Below the pieces are notes generated by a model. It had not been told where the DNA came from. It saw only the letters and a list, made by a program, of their open reading frames with translations, and searched no databases. A program made the position numbers and the translations under genes. A stretch of 64,000 bases of DNA from Oryzias latipes (lineage: Eukaryota; Chordata; Actinopteri; Beloniformes; Adrianichthyidae): assembly GCF_002234675.1 (NCBI RefSeq), contig NC_019859.2, positions 12,973,483 through 13,037,482 of the forward strand, written 5' to 3'. Positions 54,220 to 57,600 of the stretch are shown here, piece after piece (position 1 is the first letter of the stretch; each line of letters begins with the position of its first letter).

Positions 54220-54252
54220 TTTATTGGTCATAGCAGAATCTGAACATTTATT
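54220..54252 (-). promoter_or_regulatory. rpl9 polyadenylation signals (distal exon)
   Basis: AATAAA on the minus strand at 54220-54225 and again at 54247-54252. The second overlaps the TAA stop of the distal terminal exon (54248-54250). A very short 3' UTR is typical of ribosomal protein genes. Confidence 0.7.
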
Positions 54253-54357
54253 CACTGGCTGACTCCACCACAGTGGTCCTTTCGCTCACATAGATGCCGT
54301 CCAAGAACTTCCTGATGTCCTTCTTCCTCACTGTGGTGGCCTGCTGGATCAAAGCCG
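54248..54357 (-). CDS. rpl9: rpl9 alternative terminal exon B (distal)
   Basis: Acceptor TTGCAG preceded by a pyrimidine tract; starts in the same phase as exon A and encodes the uL6 C-terminal helix region followed by a different tail ([12 protein letters not shown], then TAA). Joined to the upstream exons it gives 193 residues. Against exon A, a hand comparison of the first 32 codons shows 16 synonymous and 4 amino-acid-changing differences (K/R, N/K, K/R, G/T), a pattern expected from purifying selection on both copies rather than from a decaying duplicate. Polyadenylation signals follow at once. Mutually exclusive use with A is inferred, since each carries its own stop. Confidence 0.85.
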
Positions 54358-54637
54358 CTGCAAAGAGAGAAACAACAAGCGGAGAGCAGAGCGTGAGAAC
54401 GGGAGCTGTGAGCGGCATGCAGGCCGTGTCTGTGTGGGAGTAACTTCCAGTACCCTGGTGTGTTAGACAATTATCAGTAAAGTGGTTGGTTAGTCACAGG
54501 GAAAAAAAAGACAGAAATAAAAGTAAAAAGCAAGAATAATTAAAGAAATAAATAAAAAAGCAGGAATAGTATCCAGAGAAGTAATAAGCATGCAGTCAGA
54601 CGGCGATGTCTAACCTCTACAAGTGCAGATGTAACTT

Positions 54638-57600
54638 TTACTGTTCTGGTTCCACTACTGTTCCTTTCTCGGAAACGTAAATGCCGTCCAAGAACTTTCT
54701 GATATCCTTATTTTTGACTGTGGTAGCCTGTTGGATCAGGGCAGCTGGAACACAAAGGTTATGACGAGGATGAGCAACAGGTACTTAAAACAGAGACGGA
54801 CGGTAAGATTTCACAGGCGGTTTTGGGCCACAGGTTCACCACTCTGACAGGAAAGTGAACAAATGAGGTGAAAATACGATTTTACGCTCAGTGAAAAATA
54901 GATCAAATAAAATAAACCACTGATCCAATAAACCAGTGAGGCATCTTGATTGTAGTAAAAACGGATGAACATGACATCTGTGAAAAGGTCATCATCATTT
55001 TTCTTTAATTTGTCAAAACATTAATTCTTCCTCTTGGCATAAACCCATGAACAGTTTCACACAGGAAAAAGTCAACTCCCCTGCAAATTCACAGTATCAG
55101 CTTTGATAGAAGGATTCAAACATCAGACCAGCCTAAAGCTACTTTTGTATTTGCACAGCTTTTTCATAACTTTTGCTAAAACACTGCTTATTCTAGAGGA
55201 AACAGTTCAACGGTGTGATGTCTCCATACGATCCTCCCTCCATGAAACAAAATAGTACAAATGTATAAAAGGAAAATATTTAGTTTGAGCCTGAGCTGTT
55301 ATTAAAAAACTGTCTTGCCTTGGCAGTTTGTAAATGCTTAGGCTTGATTTATTTTATTTATGCACATATAAAACATAACAAATGTATGTACTGTCGATAG
55401 GGTGGGTCATATTCCAAAAATCACAGGGAAGTTATTAGATTTCCAGCACTAGAAAATATTTTTGGGGCATGTGAGTTTTGCTGCAGGCAATCACTAGAAT
55501 CAAGCATTAATAACCACTGACAACGACAAAAGGATTTCCTTGGAGTTCCATCTTTAATTTATTTTAGATACTCCAAAGTCATTCTTGCTTAAAAGCACCT
55601 GACTCAACATCCAAACCTAACTGTCAAAAAAGAAAAAACTGAGTTTACCCTAAAATGAGGAACATTCAATTTTATCCATAAAACTTTATTGATACTAAAC
55701 TCTCATGTTATACTAGTTATATTAGTACAATTTAGATCTGAAAAAATGCCATTTCTTTTAAAATGATAAAATAGAACAAGGTCTAGTTTCTATCACTGCC
55801 ATCCTTCTCTTACCCTAACCTTAAATTCCTTGCAGGTCTAAATGTTTTCAGTTGAGTCAACAATTCTTCTCCGATTGAAATGAAGACAAGATAGAACCAA
55901 GCCATATGATAAACTGCTAAAGAAAGAGTTTAAAAAACCAAAAGAAACGTACCAGAGTTTGAAACCAACTCAATGTCATTACCCTCCAGGACGAGTTCAT
56001 CCTTCTGGGCAGCAGACACTGCACACATCACACCTGGAAGAAGAACATAGTAGTTTGAAGACACCGTGACACACTGATATGAAAAACCAAGAAATCTCAA
56101 CGCGTCACCGTAACCTCAGAGAAATCTACTTCTGCAGGTAAAAGTGACATAAGTCAATGAAAAACGGGATTCCAGCAACAGCTTTGCTCTGAACAACCTT
56201 TGTGTGACTTTATAGTGATTCACAGATGAAGCACAAAGCAAAACCTCCACGAGTAGTTTACCTTTGTAAAGCTTACGAGCCAATAGGTCAATTTATGATT
56301 TATTCATTATAATTGAATTATTTGCATATGGATGTATGCATATGTATATACATCTTCTAATCATTTTATAACTAATTATCCCAAGTTTCATATCTTTCTC
56401 TCTCTCTCTATATATATAATTGGTCTTCACAGTAAATCGCAAATTTATCTTTATCACAATATCAAGCTGCAGCGAAAATTGCAATAAATGGCTACCTTGA
56501 ATGTGCTAAAACACTCCTATGGCAGCTTGAAGTATTTAACGTATCAAATAAATCAATTTCTGCATTTGACCAATCAGATGGACGGCTTCACGTTGTTGAC
56601 CAATCAGATGGAGCTCTTCTGTTAGATGCTCACTTCCTATGTAGACGAGGGTCATTTGGAGGGTGATTTAAGTAATGTTGACTCTTATTGAAATGAAATT
56701 GTTGTAGTAAAGAGGAAATTATGTTTTCGGTTGTTTTGCTATTTGTTCATGTATCTTAAGTTTGAATTTGTTTTGATTACTTGAAATAAACGATATCCAA
56801 CTCCAGCTCAAGACTGAAAAGGATGTCCTAAAGCAAGTTTCATGACTAAAGAGGGCAGCATAAAGGCAACATTTTAATGTTCCCCTAAAATATACCAAAT
56901 AATGATCCATCTCACACAGATATAAAAGGTAAAAGTAAATAAATAAAAATTATTAATAAAAAACGAAAAACTGAAAATAAGTCTACCAAATGTGCTTTGA
57001 GTTATGGCAGTTATTTCCCAATCATAACATACAAACTTACATTCAAGACAGAAGAAAGTAAACATAACAAGGTTAAGGAAATACTAATGCATGCGTCTTT
57101 TTATGCTCTTTGCCAACTGAACAATATTCCAGACTCACCAGCCCTCATTCTGACCCGGCGGATGTACTTCTCTCCCAGGAAGTTCCTGATCTCCACCAGC
57201 TGTCCATTTTCCTGAATGACCACGTTGATGGGGAAATGGGCGTACACAGAACGCATTTTATACCGGAAACCCTGCATTCAAACAAAATAAAACTGTTTTA
57301 GACGAAAGCAGGGTAACCACCAAACAAAAGTCAATCAGGTCTTTCCCAAAGACCAGGCTGTGCTCTGCTGGAAAGACGCCTCACCAAAGTGACGCCTTTG
57401 ATCATGTTCTGAACATGGCTGCAGATAGTACGGACTGTGGCCAGCTCCTTCCTGTTTCCCCACCATTTATCCACACGAAGCTGAGGATGAAAACAAGCTT
57501 TGTTTGTTTGAAATCACTTCCAGATTACATCCAAGACTTTATCTTGAAAGAAAAGATCGACTATCGACAACTGAGATCATGTAAAATATTTCACTTTAAA

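What the first reader, a model, noticed from the sequence alone, without database searches (positions are those of the whole stretch)
54248..54744. Tandem duplicated terminal coding exon of rpl9, predicting two uL6 C-terminal isoforms
Seen directly: two exons, 54638-54744 and 54248-54357, both in the same phase as the upstream donor at 55953, both with good acceptors (TTCCAG, TTGCAG) and stops, encoding near-identical residues up to GIYVSE and then distinct tails (KGTVVEPEQ against [10 protein letters not shown]). By hand count, 16 of 32 aligned codons differ synonymously and only 4 change the residue. So the duplication is old and both copies appear constrained. Core ribosomal proteins rarely have alternative coding exons; this would give ribosomes differing at the uL6 C-terminus. 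I know of no such arrangement in human RPL9.
Basis: partly seen in the sequence, partly recalled or inferred. Interest (0 to 1): 0.87.

Follow-up and report, generated by a model that had tools for sequence, protein, structure and literature searches.

The report
Fish rpl9 with two alternative endings
In what is probably a fish genome, the only gene found for a core ribosomal protein (uL6/RPL9) carries two old, intact versions of its last coding exon, so the animal could build ribosomes with either of two slightly different protein tails; RNA data are needed to show that both are used.

Summary
The rpl9 gene (minus strand) has two homologous end exons in the same phase: A (54744-54638) and B (54357-54248). 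Spliced to exons 2-6 they give clean proteins of 192 and 193 aa. Over 32 aligned codons there are 16 synonymous and 4 replacement differences; synonymous sites are saturated (pS 0.82, pN 0.10) and simulations reject neutral decay of one copy. A genome search found no other copy. Exon A has the canonical vertebrate sequence. B's codon usage resembles the constitutive exons; A's is an outlier. Canonical poly(A) signals lie only after B. So A is probably a stop-bearing cassette exon: inclusion gives canonical uL6 with B as 3' UTR, skipping gives the B tail. The donor that this needs is only moderate. The architecture resembles RPS24. Expression, presence in other species and ribosome function could not be tested. 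Ten searches of an open-access library listed no report of it. New variant of a known kind.

The parts
58605..58629 (-). probable non-coding exon 1 with 5'TOP-like start (approximate)
   Evidence: read from sequence: CTTCCTTTCCTCTGCTACCGGCGAG then gtgagg; inference
58037..58082 (-). exon 2, coding part from ATG (exon probably begins at 58083)
   Evidence: too short to appear in the genome search
57835..57950 (-). exon 3
   Evidence: genome match
57385..57480 (-). exon 4
   Evidence: genome match
57139..57271 (-). exon 5
   Evidence: genome match
55953..56033 (-). exon 6, last common coding exon, donor CTG|gtacgt
   Evidence: genome match
54638..54744 (-). exon A (7): [35 protein letters not shown] stop; canonical uL6 C-terminus
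54615..54637 (-). short 3' extension of exon A up to the best candidate donor GAG|gttaga
54248..54357 (-). exon B (8): [36 protein letters not shown] stop; variant C-terminus
   Evidence: acceptor score 12.8
54220..54225 (-). AATAAA poly(A) signal downstream of B; another overlaps the B stop (54252-54247)

Best explanation
The last coding exon of the only rpl9 gene found in this genome was duplicated in tandem long ago, and both copies have been kept as coding exons. The upstream copy A carries its own stop. When A is included it gives canonical uL6 (192 aa), and the transcript runs on to the poly(A) site after B, most likely by splicing from a donor 23 nt after A's stop so that B becomes 3' untranslated sequence. 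When A is skipped, exon 6 joins the acceptor of B and gives uL6 with the B tail (193 aa; K168R, N169K, K184R, G185T and new last residues). Shown: both frames, shared phase, old duplication, constraint on both copies, no other copy found. Inferred: the cassette-type choice (about 0.55) and that both mRNAs are made (about 0.75). On function I commit to two nearly interchangeable uL6 forms whose choice tunes supply or tissue expression (about 0.6) rather than strongly specialised ribosomes (about 0.2).
For: Clean 192- and 193-aa frames. 16 synonymous against 4 replacement codon differences; pS 0.82, pN 0.096; neutral models for both copies or for one copy reach so few replacements in 0 to 1 of 4000 runs. 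Both pass Pfam Ribosomal_L6 (111 and 109 bits). Six exon matches in the whole genome, all at this locus. A is identical to the closest PDB chain (7oya, zebrafish by recall) over its first 32 residues. B's codon usage fits that of the other rpl9 exons plus rps6 (P 0.55) and is not explained by local G+C (P 0.0002), while A's is an outlier (P 0.004); 5 of 5 other rpl9 exons fit when left out. AATAAA only after B; B has the highest-scoring of the six validly scored acceptors, 12.8. Nile tilapia RPL9 is listed with 8 exons and 192 aa, which would fit six exons, A and a further 3' exon (PMC7072992, passages).
Against: No transcript or peptide evidence. No other fish could be examined. The donor after A scores below the five coding-exon donors of the gene, and 208 of 1000 shuffles of the region reach its score. 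A's acceptor (7.0) is not unusually weak: constitutive exon 4 scores 6.4. AGTAAA, a variant poly(A) signal, overlaps the A stop, so A could end its own mRNA. By one paper's statement tilapia, medaka and fugu RPL9 have the human length, which suggests that the A form is the one annotated there. The codon argument rests on 35-36 codons, and with rps6 alone as reference the shared rpl9 exons are themselves borderline (P 0.05).
Confidence: 0.6

Rival explanations
1. Specialised ribosomes: A and B are chosen by tissue or stage (for example gonad against soma) and the C-terminus changes how the ribosome works. (Not exclusive of the splicing model.)
For: Both copies are old and constrained at protein level, and B's four replacements are not random decay.
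Against: The replacements are mild: two keep a basic residue (K168R, K184R), one adds one (N169K), and G185T is a state seen in chain 4v6w (Drosophila by recall). No expression data. Human RPL9 is named among RPs without tissue deviations (PMC7671327, passage).
Confidence: 0.2
2. Tandem alternative last exons with two 3' ends: A is cleaved and polyadenylated at its own site and B at the distal one.
For: AGTAAA overlaps the A stop, with T-rich sequence downstream.
Against: No AATAAA or ATTAAA between A and B.
Confidence: 0.2
3. B has taken over as the main exon in this fish and A is a minor or fading exon.
For: A's codon usage is unlike that of the other exons while B's fits them; B has the stronger acceptor and the donor after A is only moderate.
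Against: A keeps the canonical protein sequence, identical to the closest PDB chain over the first 32 residues; A's acceptor score lies within the range of the constitutive exons; tilapia RPL9 is listed with 192 aa.
Confidence: 0.15
4. B is a dead copy, or is kept only as 3' untranslated or regulatory sequence of the A transcript.
For: B could serve as the 3' UTR of A transcripts.
Against: Conservation is at codon level, with saturated synonymous sites and an intact frame, acceptor and stop, and RP-like codon usage. The folded region is no more stable than shuffles (z -0.81).
Confidence: 0.05

Closest known systems
RPS24 (eS24) alternative C-termini in mammals
   Same: A core ribosomal protein whose C-terminus depends on inclusion or skipping of an exon that carries a stop codon (PMC12686416, passages seen).
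   Different: RPS24 uses microexons that change one to three residues; here a whole 35-codon exon is replaced by a homologous copy. I did not compare the sequences; the two proteins are different families by established knowledge.
Tandem duplicated exon substitution events (human catalogue of 236 events, 77 of them C-terminal; PMC9741552, passages seen)
   Same: Homologous adjacent exons in one phase giving isoforms that differ in a homologous region.
   Different: The word 'ribosomal' does not occur in that paper's main text; its set is human and annotated, and here transcript evidence is lacking.
Ribosomal protein paralogs (e.g. Rps27/Rps27l, PMC10313321, passages seen; RPL3 and RPL22 paralogs in tilapia, PMC7072992, passages seen)
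   Same: Two versions of one ribosomal protein available to one animal.
   Different: Those are separate genes; here the versions share one promoter and five coding exons, so choice must be made at splicing or 3'-end formation.

Membership tests
uL6 / RPL9 ribosomal protein | Ribosomal_L6 domains above the curated cut-off | tested here: met
   111.2 bits (A form) and 109.4 bits (B form) against a cut-off of 27
uL6 / RPL9 ribosomal protein | orthologue at the ancestral locus rather than a paralogue | tested here: met
   Only locus found in the genome; of four neighbouring pieces scanned, three matched (LIAS_N, BRCT, RFC1) and one matched nothing; that human RPL9 also lies beside LIAS and near RFC1 is recalled
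tandem duplicated exon substitution | adjacent homologous exons with the same phase | tested here: met
tandem duplicated exon substitution | both copies constrained as coding sequence | tested here: met
tandem duplicated exon substitution | transcripts use one copy or the other as coding exon | not testable with these tools
   no RNA data
RPS24-like stop-bearing cassette exon (works like) | usable donor after the upstream stop, joining it to the downstream exon | tested here: inconclusive
   best candidate ends at 54615; 30 of 1000 shuffles reach it near the stop, 208 of 1000 over the region
unproductive splicing with nonsense-mediated decay, as in ribosomal protein autoregulation | an isoform with a stop more than about 50 nt before the last junction | tested here: inconclusive
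   With the best donor the A stop lies 23 nt before the junction, and the B stop is in the last exon; use of the weaker candidate donors at 54498 or 54454 would give a longer distance

The most novel reading that the evidence does not exclude
An old and probably widespread fish system in which one gene makes two uL6 C-termini by skipping or including a duplicated exon, with tissue- or stage-dependent choice, so that ribosome composition is set by splicing instead of by paralogous genes.
Probability: 0.2. Interest if true: 0.85.

Novelty: new variant of a known kind. Interest (0 to 1): 0.6.

Why it matters
Ribosome heterogeneity is often argued from paralogous genes with different promoters, where protein difference and dosage are confounded. 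Two constrained endings inside one gene share promoter and dosage, so swapping one exon would test directly whether a ribosomal protein variant matters. It would also show that a core ribosomal protein can tolerate, and keep, an alternative coding exon over a long time.

Tried and rejected
Third exon copy: tblastn over the window found only A and B at E below 0.1; a 13-nt match at 54099 is not significant (13 of 500 mononucleotide shuffles for B, 21 of 500 for A). Exonic splicing enhancers as the cause of A's odd codons: GAA and purine counts in A are ordinary, while B is slightly purine-rich (P 0.013). Competing RNA structures, which PMC9013439 (passages) discusses for duplicated terminal exons: the fold of 54205-54780 has z -0.81. 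Intronic snoRNA: no Rfam hit in 53000-59600. Retrocopies as fossil mRNAs: none found; the genome search listed six matches, exons 3-6, A and B of this gene. Exon 2, with 15 codons, was missed, and the tool scores only its best candidates, so short or decayed copies could be missed too. DNA-pattern scans for KFLDGIYV gave 2 viral and 51 prokaryote contigs; 701 bases of one were read (L002) and none was used as a relative. Wider codon control: families PF00297, PF00573 and PF01201 did not complete, so only rps6 (PF01092; 122 codons) was added. Papers: ten answered searches, whose lists were capped, showed no title or abstract start about alternative rpl9 end exons. Five listed papers with the word RPL9 were checked for it by passage: one human liver-cancer study names RPL9 as an alternatively spliced gene without giving the event in the passage (PMC6923823); the other four give no splice form of RPL9 in the passages shown. 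Only open-access text was searched, annotation databases were not available, and supplementary tables could not be opened. A paper says that RPL9 length differs in zebrafish from the other four species, while PDB chain 7oya has 192 aa; a 193-aa B-type form in zebrafish is a lead that I could not check. PDB tables carry no organism; 7oya as zebrafish and 4v6w as Drosophila are recalled.

Full report
What is there. The window lies in a 734-Mb genome of 25 contigs, its own contig being 37.7 Mb. On the minus strand lies a complete rpl9 gene. Exons 2 to 6 and either of two end exons give clean reading frames of 192 aa (A) or 193 aa (B). A is 54744-54638 and B is 54357-54248, both entered in the same phase from the donor of exon 6 at 55953. 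Both forms score above the Pfam cut-off for Ribosomal_L6. Of four neighbouring pieces scanned, three match LIAS_N, BRCT and RFC1 domains and one nothing. From memory, human RPL9 has the same neighbours, so this is probably the ancestral locus.

More than chance. The two exons share 105 nt at 74% identity, beginning 6 nt before the exon and ending near codon 33, with no clear similarity in the flanking intron or 3' sequence. Of 32 aligned codons, 16 differ synonymously and 4 change the residue. With Nei-Gojobori counting, pS is 0.82 (saturated) and pN 0.096. If both copies, or only one of them, had drifted neutrally to the observed number of nucleotide differences, four or fewer replacements appeared in 0 of 4000 runs in three settings and in 1 of 4000 in the fourth. 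So the duplication is old and both copies have been selected as protein.

Which copy is ancestral. Among 107 distinct PDB chains at E up to 0.001 (60 listed, 5 alignments printed), the closest is 7oya, identical to exon A over residues 158-189. For exon B alone the closest of 61 is again 7oya, then 4v6w (Drosophila by recall), which has T where B has G185T. So A is the canonical end, and B carries K168R, N169K, K184R, G185T and unrelated last residues.

No other copy found. A six-frame search of the whole genome with the A protein gave six matches, exons 3-6, A and B of this gene. Exon 2 was too short to be seen and the tool scores only its best candidates, so very short or decayed copies could be missed; but no second rpl9 locus and no retrocopy that could have preserved a spliced mRNA appeared.

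How it may be expressed. Between A and B there is no AATAAA or ATTAAA; the canonical signals overlap or follow the B stop. AGTAAA overlaps the A stop. The best donor after the A stop ends an exon at 54615, 23 nt after the stop; it scores 5.4 against 7.5-11.0 for the five coding-exon donors, and is reached by 208 of 1000 shuffles over the region and 30 of 1000 near the stop. The simplest reading is that A is a stop-bearing cassette exon: included, it yields canonical uL6 and B becomes 3' UTR; skipped, exon 6 joins B. With that donor neither form would carry a stop that triggers decay by the 50-nt rule. Nile tilapia RPL9 is listed with 8 exons and 192 aa (Table 1 of PMC7072992, passage), which would fit an untranslated exon 1, five shared exons, A and one more 3' exon. 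I could not see whether that last tilapia exon contains a B frame.

Codon usage. I asked whether A and B use codons like the rest of the gene. With exons 2-6 and 122 codons of rps6 as reference, B fits (P 0.55) and A does not (P 0.004); each of the five other rpl9 exons fits when left out (5 of 5, P 0.13-0.48). With rps6 alone as reference B fits (0.48), A does not (0.0008), and the shared rpl9 exons taken together are borderline (0.05). B's usage is not explained by local G+C (P 0.0002). This suggests that B is heavily translated and is evidence against B being decorative; it sits uneasily with 192 aa being the listed product in tilapia and with the paper's statement that RPL9 length differs only in zebrafish among tilapia, zebrafish, medaka, fugu and human. 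A test for splicing-enhancer content did not explain A's codons.

Comparison. RPS24 is the closest precedent in mechanism: inclusion or skipping of a stop-bearing exon gives alternative C-termini of a core ribosomal protein (PMC12686416, passages). In the human catalogue of tandem duplicated exon substitutions, 77 of 236 events are C-terminal, and the word 'ribosomal' is absent from its main text (PMC9741552, passages). Ten literature searches with capped lists showed no report of alternative rpl9 end exons. One human liver-cancer paper names RPL9 as an alternatively spliced gene without giving the event in the passage (PMC6923823). This covers open-access papers only and says nothing about annotation databases, which may well list both forms.

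Verdict. A real, old and constrained duplication of the terminal coding exon in a core ribosomal protein gene with no other copy found in the genome. That both isoforms are made is likely but not shown; that ribosomes differ functionally is open.

Noticed in passing
58605-59530: rpl9 lies head to head with a gene one of whose first coding pieces matches LIAS_N; the two may share a bidirectional promoter (inference; the lias start was not mapped).
   Followed up: partly
59269-59305: A run of 37 T on the minus strand, just upstream (in the lias direction) of the exon that matches LIAS_N.
   Followed up: no
44486-49093: Pieces of an rfc1-like gene (RFC1 C-terminal domain and a BRCT domain) downstream of rpl9 on the same strand.
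   Followed up: partly
54087-54099: A 13-nt exact copy of the start of exon B downstream of the gene; not significant against shuffles (13 of 500).
   Followed up: yes
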